Both the position numbers and the translations under genes were made by a program. This document shows, one piece after another, positions 41,655 through 63,737 of a DNA stretch of 64,000 bases (positions within the stretch are counted from its first letter, which is position 1; each line of letters opens with the position of its first letter). Under the pieces are notes generated by a model. That model was not told the DNA's origin. It saw only the letters and a program-made list of their open reading frames with translations, and ran no database searches. Source of the DNA: Candidatus Thorarchaeota archaeon (GTDB lineage: Archaea; Asgardarchaeota; Thorarchaeia; Thorarchaeales; Thorarchaeaceae); the NCBI GenBank assembly GCA_021498125.1, contig JAIZWL010000001.1, forward strand, positions 385,434 to 449,433, in the 5' to 3' direction.

Positions 41655-42191
41655 GTGTCTGAAACATTTGATCTTATGCGCAAGGTTGTCATGATTGGTG
41701 CAGGGGGGAGCGGGAAGACTGCTCTTGTCAATCGCTTTCTAACACAAAAATTTACGGAACAATATATTGTCACCATTGGTTCGCAGTTTGCAGTAAAGAC
41801 TGTTACAGTGCAAGATTCGAATGGGAAAGATGTGACGGTCAAGCTACTTGTCTGGGATCTTGCTGGTCAAGAACGGTTTGATTTCATTCGTACCAGTTAT
41901 TACAAAGGTGCGAAAGGAGCTCTGCTTGTCTTTGATGTCACACGAAAGAGCACTTTTGTAGAACTCTCTAAATGGATCGATGAGACCGAGAATGCATTAG
42001 GGGCTCGAATCCCCATTATTCTTCTTGCAAACAAGGTCGATCTCGAGGCCGAGCGCGTCATTACTACAGAGATGGGTCAACAGTTCGTGCAAGAGTATGG
42101 ATTACAAGGCTATCTTGAAACAAGTGCACTGACAGGAACAAATGTCGAAGAGGCATTCCATTTGTTGGCTCGTGAAGCAATCAGTAATTGA
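41655..42191 (+). CDS. Ras/Rab-like small GTPase
   Basis: 178 aa. All G boxes are visible: P-loop GAGGSGKT (15-22), G2 Thr near residue 40 (TIGSQF), G3 DLAGQER (68-74), G4 NKVD (126-129) and G5 ETSAL (155-159). The Gln of the WDLAGQE motif, needed for hydrolysis, is present. No C-terminal prenylation Cys; the protein ends soon after the last helix. Eukaryotic-like small GTPases of this type are hallmark genes of Asgard archaea. GTG 41655 follows GAGGTGA. Confidence 0.93.
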   Translation: MSETFDLMRKVVMIGAGGSGKTALVNRFLTQKFTEQYIVTIGSQFAVKTVTVQDSNGKDVTVKLLVWDLAGQERFDFIRTSYYKGAKGALLVFDVTRKSTFVELSKWIDETENALGARIPIILLANKVDLEAERVITTEMGQQFVQEYGLQGYLETSALTGTNVEEAFHLLAREAISN

Positions 42192-48866: not shown

Positions 48867-50057
48867 GTGAAAACTATCAGATTAGCCACCTTTGATGGTA
48901 TTTTGGAGACCGAAACAATGCCTGTTGCCTTGCTATTAATTGATTGGGATTCCAAAATCGGCGCTGTTCTTAAAGCAAAGGTCCCTGCGGATTTCGCCGA
49001 TTATTATCGAGAAGATCTTAATACTGAGATTATGCGAATATTCACTTCTCATGCTATGGGTGATGCAACAGCGGGTTTTGCTTCACTAAGTGTCAGAATC
49101 GGCGGTGAAGAGTATAATGTTGCCTCCTATTATACTGGTGTAGTTCGCGAAGAGGAACAATACTGTGTGTCTTTGCTCCTCTCTACATCTGAAGATCCTA
49201 AAGCCTATGAGGGTGCAATTACGTCGGTCGTGTCGCATCTGACGAGTGCAGTTGTGTCGATGACTGACTCCGAGATTCAAGAAGAACTTGAAAACACATA
49301 TCGCCGAATTATTCGTCTTGCCGGTATGACAGATGAGAGTCGTCTGGCCCGTCTGTTTGCTGATGAGATCACCCGCGCAGTGTTTCCAAAATTATGGAGA
49401 GGTGGCGTTTCCAAGGAAGACCTTGAAGAGTGGCTAAAGATGGTGACAGGTCTCCCGAGTGTGAGTGTTGATTCGGTCATTGCGCCATTTGAAGAACTGG
49501 GCATTGTCAAGACTGAATGGGTTGATGAGATAGGGCGAACTTGCGTCTTTATGATCAAGGACCTAGAGATCTTTCGAGCACCTCCACTCATGGCGATGGA
49601 GGCCGCAAGTTCAATGCTTGACCCAGAACTGGCAGCCGAATACAAGTCAGAGGTCCTAGAGTTCCTCACAGAATGGCAAAAGACTCCAGATGATACTGTG
49701 GCAATTGCAGAGGTACTTGCAGATCCTGACTGTTATGATATTCTTAACGAGTTGCGTCGTCGGCCCGTCAATGTGGCCGAACTTGAGGCTTCACTCAGTA
49801 TTCCTCCAAAAGACCTTCGTACGGCCATTCAGACGCTCAAGAAGTATCGTGTCATTACTGAGAAGCGTAGAAAGGGGCCATCTGGTGAATACGATAAGTG
49901 GCTCTTCTTGCTCAATGATATTCGAGTCCGTCTGTTCTTCCCCGAGTACTTCCTCCAGACACTAGTGACAGATCTGGAGAAGAATCCCGAAGATACACGG
50001 GCACGACAGATGGTCGAGCATCATCTTCGTCTTTTAAGAGACAATTTCCCACGATAG
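48867..50057 (+). CDS. Longin/roadblock-like domain plus winged-helix protein
   Basis: 396 aa. Residues 1-130 have a longin-type profilin-like pattern (PVALLLIDWDSKIGAVLKAKVPADFADYYREDLNTEIMRIFTSH; ASLSVRIGGEEYNVASYYTGVV; YCVSLLLSTSEDPKAYEGAI). Then two winged-helix units: about 175-245 (ELGIVKTEWVDEIGRTCVFMI) and 285-345 (DPDCYDILNELRRRPVNVAELEASLSIPPKDLRTAIQTLKKYRVI). The layout resembles the two proteins at 19917 and 22800 but the sequence is different. GTG start. A GTPase-related adaptor or regulator is likely. Confidence 0.72.
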   Translation: MKTIRLATFDGILETETMPVALLLIDWDSKIGAVLKAKVPADFADYYREDLNTEIMRIFTSHAMGDATAGFASLSVRIGGEEYNVASYYTGVVREEEQYCVSLLLSTSEDPKAYEGAITSVVSHLTSAVVSMTDSEIQEELENTYRRIIRLAGMTDESRLARLFADEITRAVFPKLWRGGVSKEDLEEWLKMVTGLPSVSVDSVIAPFEELGIVKTEWVDEIGRTCVFMIKDLEIFRAPPLMAMEAASSMLDPELAAEYKSEVLEFLTEWQKTPDDTVAIAEVLADPDCYDILNELRRRPVNVAELEASLSIPPKDLRTAIQTLKKYRVITEKRRKGPSGEYDKWLFLLNDIRVRLFFPEYFLQTLVTDLEKNPEDTRARQMVEHHLRLLRDNFPR

Positions 50058-50403: not shown

Positions 50404-51384
50404 CTACTCTTTATTCTTGAACAACTGAGAGGCTTCCTCTCTGCTTAGATCTTTGGAGTACCAGATTCTTCCATAGTGTTCCTCATATCCGATTGACTCA
50501 TACATTTTACGAGCGGGCATTGCAGACTCATTTACCACAAGTTCGGAAATTTCAATTCCTTTTTTGTATGCTCGCCAAAGTACTTCTTCAAGGATAGTCT
50601 TCCCAAACCCATGGCCACGGTATTCCGGAAGTACTCCTATTCCCTGTATTAGTACACGACGTTTTTGATCTTCTGTTGACGGTGCAAACACCAGGCCAAG
50701 GCAATATGCCGCAGGTCTTCCGTCTACAAGTCCCAAGAGAAAGAGCTCTGGATCATAATCGGGTCTATTTCTTATAGTTGTAAAGTCGGCCTCTGATGCA
50801 TCCTGATATTGATAATTCCCATGAAATATCAGATTCTGCATATCCGCCCAAATTTTGGCGTCTGTGTTCTTCATCTCTCTCAGAGTAAAGCCTTCAACGG
50901 TGTCAGGTCTTTTTATTCTGCTCAGGTCGGGGTGAGAGAGCTTGAGCCATTCGCTTATGCGTTTGAATCCTCTATGTGCAATGAATGATATACTGTATTC
51001 CTGATACGATGGGATATTACAGGTCATGATTTTGATTGCGTTTTTACTTGATAGACGTTCAAGTTCCCCAAGCAGTTTAGTGCCTATACCTCTCTCTCGG
51101 AACTCGGGATGAACCATTCCGGTAATGTATGCCTCTTCCGGATTAGACCTCTCAGGGCGCCATGTAGCAATTCCAATCAACATACCATCAATAGTTCGGG
51201 CTGTGATCACATTTTCTTTGAGATCAAGTCTAAGGTGATGATAACTATTCCTAAAGAACTCCCCGTCTAAATCGGCATGATCCGGATTATCCCAACCACT
51301 TACGGCATTGTACAACTTTGCCATATCATCATACATATCTTGATATCCTGTCTCTATAGAGATATTCTCGTTATGTATCATCAA
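50404..51384 (-). CDS. Tandem GNAT acetyltransferase
   Basis: 326 aa with two GNAT domains. The N-terminal one has the acetyl-CoA loop HPEFRERGIGTKLLGELE (motif A), the C-terminal one LPEYRGHGFGKTILEEVLWRAYKKG followed by the Asn-x-x-A...YxxxGY ending (NESAMPARKMYESIGYEEHYGRIWY). The tandem layout recalls mycothiol synthase MshD, but the substrate is unknown. ATG 51384. Single gene, facing the RNA-like region. Confidence 0.92.
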   Translation of the reverse strand: MMIHNENISIETGYQDMYDDMAKLYNAVSGWDNPDHADLDGEFFRNSYHHLRLDLKENVITARTIDGMLIGIATWRPERSNPEEAYITGMVHPEFRERGIGTKLLGELERLSSKNAIKIMTCNIPSYQEYSISFIAHRGFKRISEWLKLSHPDLSRIKRPDTVEGFTLREMKNTDAKIWADMQNLIFHGNYQYQDASEADFTTIRNRPDYDPELFLLGLVDGRPAAYCLGLVFAPSTEDQKRRVLIQGIGVLPEYRGHGFGKTILEEVLWRAYKKGIEISELVVNESAMPARKMYESIGYEEHYGRIWYSKDLSREEASQLFKNKE

Positions 51385-51469: not shown

Positions 51470-53152
51470 ATGAATCAAGAGTATTCTGACAGTATTTCTA
51501 AGGTGGCCCTCTTGATACACAATACCTTTCTAGTCCGCGAATCAACTAATGAGATACTTGCAACAACTCAATATTGGCCAATTACTGTTGATTTGAAGGA
51601 TCTAGAAGAATTTGTTACAACAAGGGCCGATCTGAAAAAGTCAGATGCGACGATTCAAGAAATCCCACTTGTCATTGGAGATCACAAGTATCATGGGTGG
51701 ACCGTTCTTCCTGATTATCTTCTTGTGTTCGTTACTGATGCTCAAGAAGACGAATCTGCTATTTTTGAGCGCATGAGCAAAGCCGCATCTGCACTTAAAA
51801 AACGCATTAAGAAAGTTGGATTAGAAAAGACGATAGATGAGTATGTCTCCCTTATTGAGCCATCCATTATCACACGTCTGAAGATTGCCTTAGTAGGTGA
51901 AGGTGGTGTGGGAAAGACAACCACACTCCATCTGCTCCTTGGTGATACACCGCCAACTCAGTACGTTCCAACGATTGCACTTAACCTTGAAACCGTTGAG
52001 AACATACGCTTTGGAAATTACTCCTTGGTCCTCTGGGACTTTGCAGGACAAGAGCGTTTCCGGAACCTCTGGAAATTCTATTTTCATGGTGCTGATGTTA
52101 TCTTCTTGGTCTGTGACTCTTCCTTGCGAAACATACTGATCAGTAAAGATATTCTCAAACTCATCCGGCGTGACGCTCCGAAGGTCCCCGTTTTTGCTTT
52201 GGCAAATAAGCAAGATTTGCCTAATGCAATGAAGCCCGAGGTCGTTCAAAAGATCCTCGGAGTACCCACGTATCCGATGGTGGCTATCGACAAAGAGCGT
52301 CGTGATGAGATGCTCCGGATTCTGATGAACGCTGCTGCGCAATATGTCGGAATTGCACTTCCCGACCTGCCCGCGTCGGAACTTCTACGGTTCAGTAATG
52401 AGGCCGCCAGTGCAGCATCTAAGATGGAACATCTTGGAAGCATGGCTGCTGAAGAATCAGATGAAGTTGAAGAAGATGAAGATGCTATCTTAGTTGATGA
52501 CGAAGATATTGAAATTGATGATTATGAGACCATTGAGATTGTTGAAGAAGTACTTGTTGATGAAGACGGTCACATTATAGAGGACGGCGAAGATTACGAA
52601 ATCGTCGAAATTGTTGAAGAGGTCATTGAGGACGACTCTGAAGAACCCGGGGAGGCATCTGCAACTGTCGAGGAAGAGCAACCTGAGGTTGTGACCGATT
52701 CTACAACCCCTGCCGTTGCCAGTGAACCTTCTGTTGAGTCCTCTCCCAGTAAAGATGCTGGCGGATTGGAAGAACCATCTACTTCGGCCCCTGACGAATT
52801 GGCCCAAGGAATTGCTGATGTGCTCATCTCTGACAGGACTGCTGCTGCTGAAGATGTTGTTGATGAATCACATGAGGCCACTCAAGTGTCTGATGAGATA
52901 CTACAGATTCTAGACTCCGATGATATAACAGTTGATGAGAGTGAAATGAGTGACGTTCCGTCTCCTGAAATTAAAGAAGAGGAGGCAACCGATCTGGACA
53001 AGATTCTGGGATCTCTTGATGACAAGCTAAATGACATTCTGCGTGAGGTCTCGGAAGATGAGGATGATACAGCTGACGCCGAAAGCCCCGATGAGGTCGA
53101 TAGTGAGACTATTGAACATATAAAACGGATAATTGACTCAGATGGCGATTGA
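51470..53152 (+). CDS. Longin-Arf-like GTPase fusion with acidic tail
   Basis: 560 aa in three parts. Residues 8-120 look like a longin/profilin-like domain (SKVALLIHNTFLVRES..., YHGWTVLPDYLLVFVTDAQEDESAIFERM, then helix). Residues 137-295 are an Arf/SRbeta-like GTPase: P-loop GEGGVGKTT (143-151), Thr of switch I in YVPTIALN, DFAGQER (190-196), NKQD (246-249). Residues 325-560 are a disordered, very acidic tail with a repeated YE(T/I)(I/V)EIVEEV unit and Glu-rich helices. Longin domains in eukaryotes control vesicle GTPases in trans; here they are joined. ATG 51470, preceded by GGGGATG. Confidence 0.85.
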   Translation: MNQEYSDSISKVALLIHNTFLVRESTNEILATTQYWPITVDLKDLEEFVTTRADLKKSDATIQEIPLVIGDHKYHGWTVLPDYLLVFVTDAQEDESAIFERMSKAASALKKRIKKVGLEKTIDEYVSLIEPSIITRLKIALVGEGGVGKTTTLHLLLGDTPPTQYVPTIALNLETVENIRFGNYSLVLWDFAGQERFRNLWKFYFHGADVIFLVCDSSLRNILISKDILKLIRRDAPKVPVFALANKQDLPNAMKPEVVQKILGVPTYPMVAIDKERRDEMLRILMNAAAQYVGIALPDLPASELLRFSNEAASAASKMEHLGSMAAEESDEVEEDEDAILVDDEDIEIDDYETIEIVEEVLVDEDGHIIEDGEDYEIVEIVEEVIEDDSEEPGEASATVEEEQPEVVTDSTTPAVASEPSVESSPSKDAGGLEEPSTSAPDELAQGIADVLISDRTAAAEDVVDESHEATQVSDEILQILDSDDITVDESEMSDVPSPEIKEEEATDLDKILGSLDDKLNDILREVSEDEDDTADAESPDEVDSETIEHIKRIIDSDGD

Positions 53153-56529: not shown

Positions 56530-56594
56530 CTTATGACCCGTCCCTCGTCGAGCTCGTCAGAGCTCTCACAACTGAAAGGGAGGTAGATTACCAG

Positions 56595-57629
56595 GTGCCG
56601 AATGTAAGGCTCACTGCAATGGTCACAACACACGGCTGAAGCTGCAAGGTCAAGCAGGATGATCTCACACGCCTTCTTCAGGCTGCGGGTCTATTGCCAC
56701 CAGATGCCTCGCGCCATGGCGATATCGGGGATGATGCAATGGTTCGTATCATCAATGACAACATGGCCGTTGTTGAAAATGTTGATGTCTTCACACCGAT
56801 ATATGACGATCCCTACATACAAGGTAAGATTGTGGCTTGCAATGCCACCAATGATCTCTTTGCAATGGGCGTCACTAACATTGTGTCCCTTCAGGCCTTT
56901 CTTGCCTTTCCGAAAGACATGCCGCAAGACATCATTGTCGGTGTGTTGAAGGGAATGAACGATTTCATGAAAGTCTTTGGTGTAGGCATCACTGGCGGTC
57001 AAACGATAACTAACCCCTGTCCCGTTCTTGGTGGAATATGTTTGGGTGTGACGCATCCTCGTCATCTCATTCATTCATCAGGAGCTCGTCCCGGTGACGC
57101 CGTTCTTCTCACAAAGCCGTTAGGGATTCAACCAGCAATGCGTTCCTATCGTGATCTCCAGAACGAAAAGAGGGATGCGTTACTTGCGCGCTTTGATGAG
57201 TCCGAACTTCGCTGGATGCAAGAGGTTTCGGTTCGAATTATGACCCACAGTAACTTAGAGGTCGCTGAGGCAATGCGTTCGGTGGGTGTCGATGCGGCCA
57301 CCGATGTCACAGGATTCGGTCTACTGGGCCATGCAACAAATGTTGCTGTGCTCAGCGAAGTGGATATTCTCATTCACCGAGTCCCTGTCATCCGTGGAAC
57401 GCTTGAATTGGCGCGTTTCTTCGGTCATCGCCTGTCTGAAGGATTTGGCGCTGAAACTGCCGGGGGTATGCTGGTATTTCTGCCAAAGGACCGTGTGGGT
57501 CAGTTTGTAGATCTCTTGGCCGAAGATGGTCTACCCTGTTGGCCTATTGGAGAGGTTGTTCCTACTACTGGATCACCTCATGCACGACTTGCCGATGATG
57601 TAGAGTATATTGAGACCGAGTTCCCGTGA
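56595..57629 (+). CDS. selD: Selenophosphate synthetase SelD, selenoprotein with in-frame UGA
   Basis: 344 aa if TGA at 56637-56639 is read as selenocysteine (residue 15). The reading frame upstream of the obvious SelD body runs GTG 56595 (GGGAGGT 10 bases before) through TTHG-U-SCKVKQ, and the Sec falls at the catalytic Cys/Sec position of SelD (HGxGC in E. coli; HGUxCK in selenoprotein SelD). Downstream parts are typical: HGDIGDDAMV, VDVFTPIYDDPYIQGKIVACNATNDLFAMG, GITGGQT and DVTGFGLLGHA. SelD makes selenophosphate from ATP and selenide, so the cell should have selenocysteine machinery. A stop-only reading would give an N-terminally cut, inactive protein. Confidence 0.9.
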
Positions 57630-57893: not shown

Positions 57894-58094
57894 ATAACTT
57901 CGCCTTATGACGATATCTTGTTATAATATACGCTATTTGACGATTTAACTTCTTGCATTTGAAGTTGACGAGTTTCTTTTCGACGCAATTTTTGGGGCGA
58001 AGATGATTCATGAACTATACAAGGGCAAATCATTTAACACTGGATGGATTAGCAAGAGTAACTAAACATAGTGCAGCAATGCAGGTGCAGGCGA
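57894..58094. promoter_or_regulatory. Divergent promoter region with inverted repeat
   Basis: Between the 54-aa minus-strand ORF and the plus-strand GTPase gene. Minus TATA at 57921-57930; a dyad AACTTC-ttgcattt-GAAGTT (57947-57966) lies between the two promoters; a plus-strand TATA-like CATTTAACA is near 58031. Position suggests shared control. Confidence 0.4.
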
Positions 58095-58799
58095 ATGAAG
58101 ATAGTTGTAACGGGACCTTATGCTGCTGGGAAGAGTCTGTTGATTCACAATATCACAGAGGGTGCATGCATTAATATTGAGAGGAACGGTACGACCATTG
58201 CAATGGATCATGGAGTTGCCAATGTTGACGGGATGAGTGTATTCCTTTTTGGTACCCCGGGTCTCTTGCGTTTTCGTACAATGCGCAAGATTTTGAGCGA
58301 GGGTGCTGATGGCATCATCTTTGTTGTTGACTCGGCAGATAAGGAATCAGATGCCCGTGCAAAGTTGTTCTTTAGAGAGATTGCATTTTTCCTCCCGGGA
58401 GTGCCATGTGTTGTTGCAGCAAATAAGCAAGATCTTGACGAGGCTCGTGCTGTTGACAAGATGCGGGCGGATATGCGATTTCTGGCAGGCGTTCCGGTCA
58501 TCCCATGCTCGGCCGAGACTGGTCATAATGTGGATAATATGCTGCGCACATTGCTCTATTTGGCAATGATGCAATGGAGCTCGGTCTTTGTCAAATTTGC
58601 AGAGTATAGTGGAAAACGCGATGGTCTCAAGAGGTTAATGGACGATCTCAACATGGATCGCGCACAGGCAGTTGGCTATCTTCGACGATTCGAGCTTCGA
58701 AAGCTATTGGAAGTCCAGCTGGGTGATGAACAATTTACAGTCTTTGATGATGTCAAGCCGCTCATGGAGAATCCAACTCTTCTCATGAGGCGTACATGA
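58095..58799 (+). CDS. MglA/SRbeta-like small GTPase
   Basis: 234 aa. GTPase domain of the MglA/Rup group: P-loop GPYAAGKS (8-15), switch I region TTIAMDHG, G3 FGTPGLLRFR (in place of DxxGQ: the catalytic Gln is Leu), G4 ANKQDL and G5 PCSAETG. The last 70 residues form an extra helical domain (FVKFAEYSGKRDGLKRLMDDLNMDRAQAVGYLRRFELRKLL). The missing Gln suggests that hydrolysis relies on a partner, as with MglA and its roadblock MglB. ATG 58095 with AGGTG upstream. The next gene encodes a TPR protein, and a roadblock gene starts at 63832. Confidence 0.9.
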   Translation: MKIVVTGPYAAGKSLLIHNITEGACINIERNGTTIAMDHGVANVDGMSVFLFGTPGLLRFRTMRKILSEGADGIIFVVDSADKESDARAKLFFREIAFFLPGVPCVVAANKQDLDEARAVDKMRADMRFLAGVPVIPCSAETGHNVDNMLRTLLYLAMMQWSSVFVKFAEYSGKRDGLKRLMDDLNMDRAQAVGYLRRFELRKLLEVQLGDEQFTVFDDVKPLMENPTLLMRRT

Positions 58800-59858: not shown

Positions 59859-62800
59859 ATGAAACCCTCTATTGCCATGACCACTAGTATACTTCTCGTA
59901 TTTGTCATTCTCTCTCAGACAATGATGATTGCTGGTTACCACAATAACGATGATCTCTCACGCAGTACGATGGGGACACCACTGATCTCGGGGATTCCCG
60001 CGGCAAATCAGACCCCTCTTCAAATGGTCACAGTAGTAGCCTCTGATCCGGCCTCCTATCTCGACGAGTTCTCATACATGGCCGCAGTTCCCTCCGCAGT
60101 GTTCTATGATGGCAGTACTCAGTACCTCTCTCCTCTCATCTTGAGTGATGGTTCGCAATCCGAAAAGTGGTTGCTTGAAGACTGGGCAGAATATCTTGGA
60201 CCCGATGGTGGGACCAAACAGCTGCGCATAATCGGCGATGTTCCGTCCTCTCGTGTTGCGGATTTTCGTAAGACTCTGGGCACTTCGGTCTTTCCATATA
60301 TTCCTAGCAAGGACCCTGATGAGGTTGCAGCAATGCTGGCGGTGTCAGACTGGCAGTCCTCCGACATTGCGGTATTTGCGCTTTCGAGATTGGCTATAAC
60401 TTCTCCTTCGTCCTTGACGGGTAGCTCCTCTTTTTCCTTCCAGAACGACCCGATGCAAATTGAAAGTAAGACCGTGACTGTGAGTTCGACTAATCCAGTC
60501 ACACTCAACTTTACGCCACCTGCTGGAACTGGTTGGATCGAGGGGTCTTTTGACTGGCCAAGTTCGTCACTCTATTTTACGCATATCCTCACAGATCCAC
60601 AGGGTCACATTGTTGATTATTCAGTTCGGAGCCAGACCTATCAAGAGCGTTTCTCTTCCTATGTTAGCAGCCCCGTCCCCCTCAAGTTCTGGCTTCCAAA
60701 TACTAATGCCGGAGAATGGAAACTGACCCTTTTCCCCGAGGCAAGTGTTAGCTCACCCGTGACCGTCACTGGATCACTCATCTATCATCCAGGTCATACC
60801 GAAACCGTCGTCGTCCCTGCGAATGCCAAGTCCCTGTCCCTAAATGTCAGCTGGGACAATAGCGCCACTGATCTCAATGTTGCACTGATTGATCCGACTG
60901 GTAGGCTTGGAGCTTGGGCGCCAGCCGGAAGTATAATTGCCAATCCGGGTTTTGAGAGTGTGCATGTTCCGTATCCCATGGAGGGTACGTGGACTGCAAT
61001 AGTGTCTTGGATGAATGCGACCTCTGAGCATAACGGTGTGGAGATGGTCTGGGACGTTACCACGATCTCCCCTGAAGTAACACCGTATTTGGAGTCAGCT
61101 GCGAATGGAGCAGTTCTTGCCTCCCTTCTCAATGCGCCTCTTCTCTATGTCACTCCCGATTCAATTCCTGAAGTGACCCAGTGGGCTATCGATCATCTTG
61201 GTGTCACTACCAGTTTTCTTGTTGATCCGGCATCACTGCATACTTCAAGTCTTACCTCTGCATTAGATGCGTTCTCCTTTGTCAATAACCTCAACAATTA
61301 CAAACTTGTGTCCCAGTGGATCCAAGCTCTCTCGAAGAGCCATGATGTTGTCGTCACGGTCCCTCATGGTAATGGCGACGAGCTCTTTGCTCCAGCTGCC
61401 TATTCCGGTGCTGTCCATGGGGCGCCTGTATTCTCTCTGTGTGGGGACAACAATCAACTGACATCATATGCGGAGGCGACATGGGCTCCTTATCTCATTG
61501 GTCCCGAGATTGATATCTACGTGACCAGTCGTTATACTACTCGCACAGAAAACGGATGGTATGATGAGCGAATCCCCAACCGTTATACTATGCAACATAC
61601 TGCGAGCAGCTTTGAGACCTTTTTGGATGATCGTGGTGCCTACAATGCAACCGCGCCGCAATCAGTAGTGGTTCTTGCCTCAGTGGATGAGATCAAACCG
61701 AGTTTTGATAGATCTATCCAGTCCCATTTCGCACCGGGACGCATTCCCGCCAAGACCGCGGCATTGGCCTCGACAATGGTCACACGGGCCGCACTTCATA
61801 GATTCCTGTTCCGTGTTGCTGATTCCGCTGATGATGCGCTTGTCTCTATGTACGCCTATACTGAAGATGCTGGATTTGTGGACAATAATTTCGATTACTA
61901 TATTGTTGATCAGTACGAGAATTCCACCAGCATGATGGAGGACGCGGGGTTCAATGTGGAGACTCACATTGGATATCAGGAGGTCTTCTCGACTATAGCA
62001 TCTCAGGTTGCGCTCTGGACCTTTAGTACCCATGGTAGTCTTACCCGGTATCCCACCGACCCCCCTGATCGACCTGATGGCGCTGGTCTCTTCTCTCTCC
62101 GCGACATTGATGCACCTTATGGTATGGAGACCTCAACAGCCCGTGATGCTAATGGGGATCATCTTGTTAATCCTGTTCTCTATGAAGAGGAGAGTACCCA
62201 CCATCGTATCGAGAGCACCGAGAACCTTGAAGCGGCCATCGGAGATATCGGGTCGCCAATCGTAATCATAACGGCATGTCTTCTAGGGGGGACACGTCTT
62301 CCTAGTATGATGATGGAACATGGTGCAGTTGCAGTCATGGCATCTCCTAGGACAGTCTATTTCCAGCCAGCGGCGATGCTCTCCCTTCTCGTGATGAAGA
62401 GTCTGACAGAGGGAACAGATACTGGGTACGCACTCAGTCACGCTCTGTCAACAATATCTACTGACTATACTGATCCATTCCCCAGTGGTGACCCACGCGA
62501 TTATGCGAACCAACACATACTCTATGGTGATCCCGGTGTCCATCTCTACGAGCCTGGCTCTACACCACGAGTGACTGCTCTCAATCCCAACACACTGTCC
62601 ATCAATGGTCATGTTCCCAGCCATGGTCTTCCCGATGTTGCCGCATTGGGCTCGACCGACTATCTTCCCACAGCATTAGAACATAATGCGATCAGTTTTG
62701 ATTTTTACAATGCCGCTAACTTTTCAGAGTTTGTCCGGTTCATAAGCCTCCGCCGGACGGTCATTATTGAACCCGGCACTATTAGTTCATTTTCTACTCT

Positions 62801-63737
62801 TCTCGCACAAAACCGTGACGCATTAAGTTCCTTTGTCACGAGTGGCGGCACACTCGTTGCATTGGGGGTGACCTCTTCAATTACTTGGCTCCCGTGGTCT
62901 GTGACCTATAATTCAACATCGACCAGTCAAAATGTCACAATTCTTGATCCGGGCCATCCACTAGTATCAGTTCCGAATGTATTGTCAACCGGGCTTTCTT
63001 ACAGTGGGATGTTCACACGATTCTGGGCAAACTTCACAGTATTAGCCGAGTCACCCTCCGGTGATCCCGTGCTCATCGCTTCCACAATTGGATTTGGTAA
63101 GGTGGCATTGACCACAATTAATCCTTCCACCTCATTGCGTGACTCATTTATTGAGAATGTAGTATCTTGGAGTAGCCAACCATCCATCATACTTGAAAAG
63201 ATAACCCTGAGCGAATATGTGATCTGGGGTGGCGATCACTTTACCATCACTCTCTATCTCGATGATGGTCGTGGTCATGGGCTCTCTGGTGCGACTCTTC
63301 GTGTCCTGATCAATGATACTGATGTATCGACCATGATCCATGAGGAAGGATCTGGTATCTACACCATTGCCATATCATCCGACTGGACCAATCAGCACCA
63401 AGGTATCTTCTGTCTGGAGGTTTATGCATCTAAGACCGGATATGATACACTTACTGCATTTCTTCCAAAGTTTGTCTATATCCGTCCCTCTCCATGGTTG
63501 GCCATTGGTGTCGTGGGTGGAGTCTTTGCACTCTTCGTGGGATTGTATGTATACAGGAAACGTAAACTCGGTGAGCCCCTCTTCGAACTCAGGCGTCCGA
63601 AAAAGCCTAAGCCGCGCCGCACCTCAGGATTTGTTTCCTCTTCCCGTCCTATCTCAAAAGAGGAGGCCGAGCGTTTAAGGAAAGAACGTGAGAAGAAAGA
63701 ACGCGAACGCGATCTCAAAGACTATTTTGGAGTGTGA
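59859..63737 (+). CDS. Giant C25 (gingipain-like) surface protein, 1292 aa
   Basis: Signal peptide at the N-terminus (hydrophobic helix about residues 8-28), a long extracellular region and a C-terminal transmembrane helix (about 1222-1243) before a basic cytoplasmic tail (RRPKKPKPRRTSG...). Peptidase C25-like catalytic region at residues 640-900: ALWTFSTHGSL (His725), VIITACLLGGTRLP (Cys807), VMASPRTVYFQ and ILYGDPGVHLYEPG, the GDP motif after the Cys. Residues 240-400 look like beta-sandwich modules. A glutamine-amidotransferase-like fold may exist at 930-1080 and a beta domain at 1150-1210. ATG 59859 after AGGAAGGAG. Protease function is inferred. Confidence 0.85.
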   Translation: MKPSIAMTTSILLVFVILSQTMMIAGYHNNDDLSRSTMGTPLISGIPAANQTPLQMVTVVASDPASYLDEFSYMAAVPSAVFYDGSTQYLSPLILSDGSQSEKWLLEDWAEYLGPDGGTKQLRIIGDVPSSRVADFRKTLGTSVFPYIPSKDPDEVAAMLAVSDWQSSDIAVFALSRLAITSPSSLTGSSSFSFQNDPMQIESKTVTVSSTNPVTLNFTPPAGTGWIEGSFDWPSSSLYFTHILTDPQGHIVDYSVRSQTYQERFSSYVSSPVPLKFWLPNTNAGEWKLTLFPEASVSSPVTVTGSLIYHPGHTETVVVPANAKSLSLNVSWDNSATDLNVALIDPTGRLGAWAPAGSIIANPGFESVHVPYPMEGTWTAIVSWMNATSEHNGVEMVWDVTTISPEVTPYLESAANGAVLASLLNAPLLYVTPDSIPEVTQWAIDHLGVTTSFLVDPASLHTSSLTSALDAFSFVNNLNNYKLVSQWIQALSKSHDVVVTVPHGNGDELFAPAAYSGAVHGAPVFSLCGDNNQLTSYAEATWAPYLIGPEIDIYVTSRYTTRTENGWYDERIPNRYTMQHTASSFETFLDDRGAYNATAPQSVVVLASVDEIKPSFDRSIQSHFAPGRIPAKTAALASTMVTRAALHRFLFRVADSADDALVSMYAYTEDAGFVDNNFDYYIVDQYENSTSMMEDAGFNVETHIGYQEVFSTIASQVALWTFSTHGSLTRYPTDPPDRPDGAGLFSLRDIDAPYGMETSTARDANGDHLVNPVLYEEESTHHRIESTENLEAAIGDIGSPIVIITACLLGGTRLPSMMMEHGAVAVMASPRTVYFQPAAMLSLLVMKSLTEGTDTGYALSHALSTISTDYTDPFPSGDPRDYANQHILYGDPGVHLYEPGSTPRVTALNPNTLSINGHVPSHGLPDVAALGSTDYLPTALEHNAISFDFYNAANFSEFVRFISLRRTVIIEPGTISSFSTLLAQNRDALSSFVTSGGTLVALGVTSSITWLPWSVTYNSTSTSQNVTILDPGHPLVSVPNVLSTGLSYSGMFTRFWANFTVLAESPSGDPVLIASTIGFGKVALTTINPSTSLRDSFIENVVSWSSQPSIILEKITLSEYVIWGGDHFTITLYLDDGRGHGLSGATLRVLINDTDVSTMIHEEGSGIYTIAISSDWTNQHQGIFCLEVYASKTGYDTLTAFLPKFVYIRPSPWLAIGVVGGVFALFVGLYVYRKRKLGEPLFELRRPKKPKPRRTSGFVSSSRPISKEEAERLRKEREKKERERDLKDYFGV

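What the first reader, a model, noticed from the sequence alone, without database searches (positions are those of the whole stretch)
51470..53152. Longin-like domain fused to an Arf-like GTPase with a long acidic repeat tail
A profilin/longin-like domain precedes a full Arf/SRbeta-type G domain in one chain, and 230 disordered acidic residues with an internal YExxEIVEEV duplication follow. In eukaryotes longin and GTPase act in trans (SRX/SRbeta, Mon1-Ccz1/Rab). A cis fusion would be an instructive evolutionary intermediate or a self-regulating switch.
Basis: partly seen in the sequence, partly recalled or inferred. Interest (0 to 1): 0.75.

Follow-up and report, generated by a model that had tools for sequence, protein, structure and literature searches.

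The report
Asgard longin-GTPase paired with longin regulator
This Thorarchaeota gene encodes a molecular switch with a regulator-type domain (longin) built into the same chain, a kind of fusion already reported from related archaea; what seems new is that relatives of this switch sit again and again directly behind a second longin protein that is probably its control partner.

Summary
The ORF encodes a longin domain (residues 1-118), an intact Arf/Rag-like G domain (about 119-283) and a long acidic tail. The true start is probably TTG 51512, not ATG 51470. AlphaFold gives the longin topology at high confidence, and profiles of the family's N-domains match longins (Fuz/MON1, AP sigma/mu).

The fusion is not new: longin-Arf-like GTPase fusions were reported in Lokiarchaeum (2016) and MK-D1 (2024). 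Here the G domains of 38 longin-GTPases fall in one Asgard clade. The tailed form occurs in 34 of 37 genomes searched from the window's own family (Thorarchaeota).

Two things go beyond the finding. The tail keeps conserved blocks, including the duplicated YEIVEEV-VDEDGH-YEIVEEV element (28 of 32 orthologues). And longin-GTPases recurrently lie just downstream of a separate longin-winged-helix protein (window 48918-50057), overlapping it or within 40 bp in several Asgard lineages. Its longin fold is closest to NPRL2 (GATOR1), a Lokiarchaeota longin and AP sigma.

I propose a GTPase switch whose cis longin pairs with this trans longin. That pairing is inferred; GAP or GEF is open. An Arf-type or SRX/SRbeta-type reading is not supported.

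The parts
51512..53152 (+). LG gene: longin + Arf/Rag-like G domain + acidic tail, 546 aa, start TTG
   Evidence: 33/33 orthologues have a start codon at this position; conserved in 34 of 37 same-family genomes
51512..51865 (+). longin domain, residues 1-118
   Evidence: AF2 topology and pLDDT; longin profiles match members of the family
51866..52360 (+). Arf/Rag-like G domain, about residues 119-283
   Evidence: Pfam Arf 5.9e-22; structural matches Z about 20-21 to Rab, Arf and Arl
51896..51922 (+). P-loop GEGGVGKTT, residues 129-137
   Evidence: most residues invariant in 71 relatives
52382..53149 (+). acidic tail, residues 291-546, mostly disordered with conserved blocks and predicted short helices
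52523..52624 (+). duplicated tail element YETIEIVEEV-LVDEDGHIIEDGED-YEIVEIVEEV
   Evidence: both copies in 28 of 32 orthologues; no other copy in the own genome
48918..50057 (+). probable partner: longin-winged-helix protein, 379 aa, start ATG (the mechanical ORF starts at GTG 48867)
   Evidence: 80-90% identical and adjacent in 20 of 20 syntenic loci, incomplete in L051; homologues upstream of LG genes in other Asgard lineages
48918..49328 (+). longin domain of the partner
   Evidence: AF2; VIA Z 11.2 to 9o5d_D (GATOR1 complex) and to 8yqg_B (Lokiarchaeota longin)
49677..49934 (+). winged-helix domain of the partner
   Evidence: VIA Z about 10 to ArsR-type regulators; NCBIfam HTH_metalloreg 1.6e-5, below its cut-off

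Best explanation
The gene encodes a GTP-dependent switch of an old Asgard family (LG: longin plus Arf/Rag-like G domain in one chain). The cis longin is a docking platform next to the G domain. It probably pairs with the longin of a separate longin-winged-helix protein encoded upstream, and this pair sets the nucleotide state of the G domain, as longin pairs do in eukaryotes (NPRL2/NPRL3 on Rag, Mon1/Ccz1 on Rab; own knowledge). The Thorarchaeota-specific acidic tail carries conserved short motifs that probably recruit effectors. Shown here: both longin folds as predictions, intact GTPase motifs, conserved tail motifs, distribution, recurrent gene pairing. Inferred: the longin-longin pairing, control of the G domain by the partner, and effector binding by the tail. 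Whether the partner is a GAP or a GEF is not decided.
For: Longin fold of the N-domain. Intact G motifs with the catalytic Gln. Partner with a longin and a winged helix. 66 of 123 partner-family hits lie within 4.5 kb of an LG-like match, 64 on the same strand, 62 upstream; overlaps or gaps under 40 bp in type D (L032, L041), L178, L179, L180, L181 and L050. Type B LG has its own upstream double-longin protein. Tail blocks conserved in orthologues of very different tail length.
Against: No complex prediction or assay was possible. In Thorarchaeota type A the pair is 419-1733 bp apart, 1454 bp in the window with an opposite-strand gene between, and the whole neighbourhood is conserved, so adjacency there is weak evidence. 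Many partner-family genes in Lokiarchaeota-like and other families lie next to large, probably surface, proteins instead. PMC10933270 found that MK-D1 GTPases are generally not in operons with longins.
Confidence: 0.5

Rival explanations
1. Self-contained switch: the cis longin regulates its own G domain, or LG homodimerises through it, and the upstream longin protein has an unrelated role.
For: Longin and G domain are joined by a very short linker (helix to 118, strand from 121). Tail-less LG genes without a detected partner nearby exist (types C and several LG loci). MK-D1 LG homodimers have been modelled (PMC10933270).
Against: Recurrent tight pairing with a free longin protein in several lineages has no role in this model.
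Confidence: 0.28
2. The longin-winged-helix protein is mainly a DNA-binding regulator, and LG is a signalling subunit that controls its transcriptional activity.
For: ArsR-type winged-helix matches.
Against: Winged helices also serve protein contacts; the DNA-binding surface was not tested, and Pfam scores are below cut-off.
Confidence: 0.12
3. A true Arf/SRbeta-type membrane switch in which the longin replaces the Arf N-terminal helix and is displaced by the interswitch toggle.
For: Best Pfam and PDB sequence matches of the G domain are Arfs; the longin sits where the Arf N-helix would be.
Against: Interswitch 3 residues longer than in Arf (alignments), no Gly2, no C-terminal Cys motif, SRPRB E 0.0056 below its cut-off.
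Confidence: 0.05

Closest known systems
Longin-Arf-like and Rag-like GTPase fusions of Lokiarchaeum and MK-D1 (PMC4917890, PMC10933270)
   Same: Longin and G domain in one chain in an Asgard archaeon; Arf by annotation, Rag/Arf by structure
   Different: Conserved acidic tail with a duplicated element in Thorarchaeota; recurrent pairing with an upstream longin-winged-helix gene, which the MK-D1 study did not see
GATOR1 (NPRL2/NPRL3) acting on Rag GTPases
   Same: Free longin protein next to a Rag/Arf-like GTPase; the partner longin is structurally close to NPRL2 and yeast Npr2 (chains named)
   Different: No sequence-level match to NPRL2; the Arg in the b4-b5 loop is not conserved across lineages; the archaeal GTPase has a longin of its own
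Mon1-Ccz1 and related longin GEFs for Rabs
   Same: Fuz_longin_1 (FUZ, MON1, HPS1) is the best Pfam match of LG N-domains
   Different: In eukaryotes the longins are separate from the GTPase; here one is fused to it
Asgard ArfR GTPases (PDB 8oum, 8ouk)
   Same: G-domain fold (Foldseek E about 1e-11, 25-27% identity)
   Different: Solved chains of about 170-175 residues, little more than a G domain; here a longin precedes it and a tail follows

Membership tests
Longin domain (N-domain of LG) | b-b-a-b-b-b-a-a topology | tested here: met
   AF2, residues 1-118, pLDDT 88-98
Longin domain (N-domain of LG) | match to longin sequence profiles | tested here: met
   For the family: 11 of 33 members match Fuz_longin_1, best 1.6e-8, L037 above the gathering score; the window sequence alone matches none
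Longin-GTPase fusions of Asgard archaea | N-terminal longin fused to an Arf/Rag-like G domain | tested here: met
   G-domain clade of 38 LG rows with 3 unlabelled rows
Arf family | G domain closest to Arf profile | tested here: met
   PF00025 5.9e-22, best of 11
Arf family | N-terminal amphipathic helix, usually with Gly2 | tested here: not met
   Residue 2 is Ile and a longin occupies the N-terminus
Arf family | short interswitch that allows the toggle | tested here: not met
   3 more residues than Arf between switch I and DxxG (alignments)
SRbeta | match to SRPRB profile | tested here: not met
   E 0.0056, 16.5 bits against a cut-off of 25
NPRL2 / GATOR1 (partner gene) | N-terminal longin of NPRL2 type | tested here: inconclusive
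   Z 11.2 to 9o5d_D, tied with a Lokiarchaeota longin and AP sigma
NPRL2 / GATOR1 (partner gene) | sequence match to NPRL2 | tested here: not met
   No NPRL2 among PDB or Pfam matches
NPRL2 / GATOR1 (partner gene) | catalytic Arg in the b4-b5 loop | tested here: inconclusive
   Arg present in Thorarchaeota and Hermodarchaeota, absent from most other lineages
NPRL2 / GATOR1 (partner gene) | GAP activity on the paired GTPase | not testable with these tools
   needs a biochemical assay

The most novel reading that the evidence does not exclude
LG and its upstream longin-winged-helix partner are a two-gene Asgard regulatory system in which a cis and a trans longin form a heterodimer on a Rag/Arf-like GTPase: a prokaryotic forerunner of GATOR1-Rag and Mon1-Ccz1-Rab control, with the Thorarchaeota tail as an added effector scaffold.
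Probability: 0.3. Interest if true: 0.8.

Novelty: new variant of a known kind. Interest (0 to 1): 0.5.

Why it matters
Longin-based regulators control Rag, Rab and Arf GTPases in eukaryotes, and how such regulation arose is open. Finding longin-GTPase fusions coupled in tight gene pairs to a free longin protein gives concrete pairs for binding and GTPase assays. PMC10933270 called matching individual Asgard GTPases to their regulators difficult because it saw no such operons in MK-D1; in other Asgard lineages the genome itself may name the partner.

Tried and rejected
Rosetta-stone idea, that the C-terminus of the 640-aa type B paralogue is a fused copy of the 396-aa partner: hhalign probability 0.8%, rejected. 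Significance of the tail duplication by shuffling one sequence: not significant. A second copy of the duplicated tail element in the own genome: none. Sequence match of the partner longin to a PDB longin: none; profile comparison of partner longin and LG longin is colinear but weak (probability 43%). A universal catalytic Arg in the partner: not conserved. Literature: no held paper found that describes the gene pairing; one paper on Asgard origins of Arf GTPases is not held, so prior description there cannot be excluded. The match list is cut off and contains some plain GTPases, so the pairing counts are approximate.

Full report
What is there. The frame 51470-53152 (+) is a real gene. Its start is most likely TTG 51512: all 33 orthologues have a start codon there (12 ATG, 11 GTG, 10 TTG), many have no in-frame start further upstream, and AAGGTGG stands before it in the window. 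The protein then has 546 aa.

N-domain. AlphaFold2 on a 71-row alignment gives residues 1-118 at pLDDT 88-98 with the order b-b-a-b-b-b-a-a, a longin layout: no N-terminal helix, two C-terminal helices, as described in PMC10933270. The window sequence alone hits no longin profile, but the family does: 11 of 33 N-domains match Pfam Fuz_longin_1 (best 1.6e-8), 7 the clathrin adaptor small chain, 4 Longin, 3 Sybindin. A profile of the N-domains finds AP-3 and AP-2 sigma/mu, delta-COP and MON1 among PDB sequences (best 9.4e-5).

G domain. Pfam Arf 5.9e-22, with Roc and Ras next; best PDB sequences are Arfs and best folds Rab, Arf and Arl at Z about 20-21. Catalytic motifs are invariant in 71 rows. 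Two Arf-defining traits fail: Ile2 with no N-helix, and an interswitch 3 residues longer than in Arf. PMC10933270 places many 'Arf-annotated' MK-D1 GTPases closest to Rag.

Tail. 256 aa with 92 acidic and 10 basic residues. Among 32 orthologues the tail length runs from 214 to 393 aa and the net charge from -46 to -140, while blocks persist: the duplicated YE-[IV]-[IV]-EEV / VDEDGHIIED / DYEIIEEV element (both copies in 28 of 32), a helix-like AKDIISEALEADDIIAAEID...ALEALSSDE block, and L.EL..ILG.LD. The duplicated element occurs nowhere else in the own genome. AF2 gives five short helices in the tail at low to middling confidence.

Family. Orthologues at 66-83% identity over longin and G domain occur in 34 of 37 genomes of the same family, the three without being incomplete ones; the named records of the close orthologues are nearly all Thorarchaeota. 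Paralogues: type B (about 640 aa, extra C-terminal domain), type C (no tail), type D (about 285 aa). Longin-GTPases also occur in Hermodarchaeota, Helarchaeota and further families of the phylum. In a G-domain tree all 38 LG rows lie with 3 unlabelled rows on one side of a 98/99 branch, apart from 24 other GTPases. That is compatible with one old fusion and some losses; it does not prove it.

Partner. The gene at 48918-50057 is 80-90% identical and adjacent in 20 of 20 syntenic loci (only 101 residues of it are present in L051). Its model has a longin domain followed by helical and winged-helix parts. VIA puts 9o5d_D (GATOR1 complex) and a Lokiarchaeota longin first at Z 11.2, with AP sigma, yeast Npr2 (8adl_S) and ArsR-type winged helices close behind; 9o5d and 8adl hold NPRL2 and Npr2. 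There is no sequence-level match to NPRL2.

Pairing. Searching 59 genomes with the partner profile and comparing positions: 66 of 123 hits lie within 4.5 kb of an LG-like match, 64 on the same strand, 62 upstream. Thorarchaeota synteny makes many of these non-independent. The independent support is the tight arrangement in type D (L032, L041: the ORFs overlap), L178 and L179 (29 and 36 bp), L180 (12 bp), L181 (overlap) and L050 (6 bp). Type B LG has its own upstream double-longin protein. In the window the pair is 1454 bp apart with an opposite-strand GNAT gene between. Other partner-family genes are not near LG and stand beside large, probably surface, proteins.

Mechanism. I infer that cis and trans longins pair and set the nucleotide state of the G domain, with the tail as an effector scaffold. 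An Arg in the partner's b4-b5 loop, the loop where NPRL2 carries its catalytic Arg78 (own knowledge), is present in Thorarchaeota and Hermodarchaeota but absent from most other lineages, so a GAP role is open.

Known or new. The cis fusion is known (PMC4917890; PMC10933270), and NPRL2-like longins have been named in Asgards (PMC9834061). I found no held paper on the recurrent LG-partner pairing or on the conserved tail; PMC10933270 reports that MK-D1 GTPase genes are generally not in operons with longins. One relevant paper was not held.

Noticed in passing
window 56553-57629 (+): SelD (selenophosphate synthase) frame with an in-frame TGA in the context HG-TGA-SCK (codon 29 of the translated stretch), so SelD is probably itself a selenoprotein; the mechanical ORF at 56694 starts too late.
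   Followed up: partly
L187 (own genome C1:1220000-1236500), L184, L185, L186: Members of the partner's longin-winged-helix family stand next to very large open frames (843 to 2199 aa), probably surface proteins: a second recurrent context.
   Followed up: partly
L031 4236-6179 and L188 4451-6145: Type B longin-GTPase of about 640 aa has an extra C-terminal domain related to that of its upstream 564-aa double-longin neighbour.
   Followed up: partly
window 41655-42191 and 58071-58799 (+): Two further small GTPases in the window: a Ras-family one (1.3e-50) and a 242-aa one with a C-terminal extension, followed by a TPR protein.
   Followed up: no
window 59859-63737 (+): A 1292-aa protein with a C25 peptidase match, 3.8e-6.
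   Followed up: no
window 50404-51384 (-): A two-domain GNAT acetyltransferase gene lies between partner and LG here and in some relatives, but is missing in others.
   Followed up: partly
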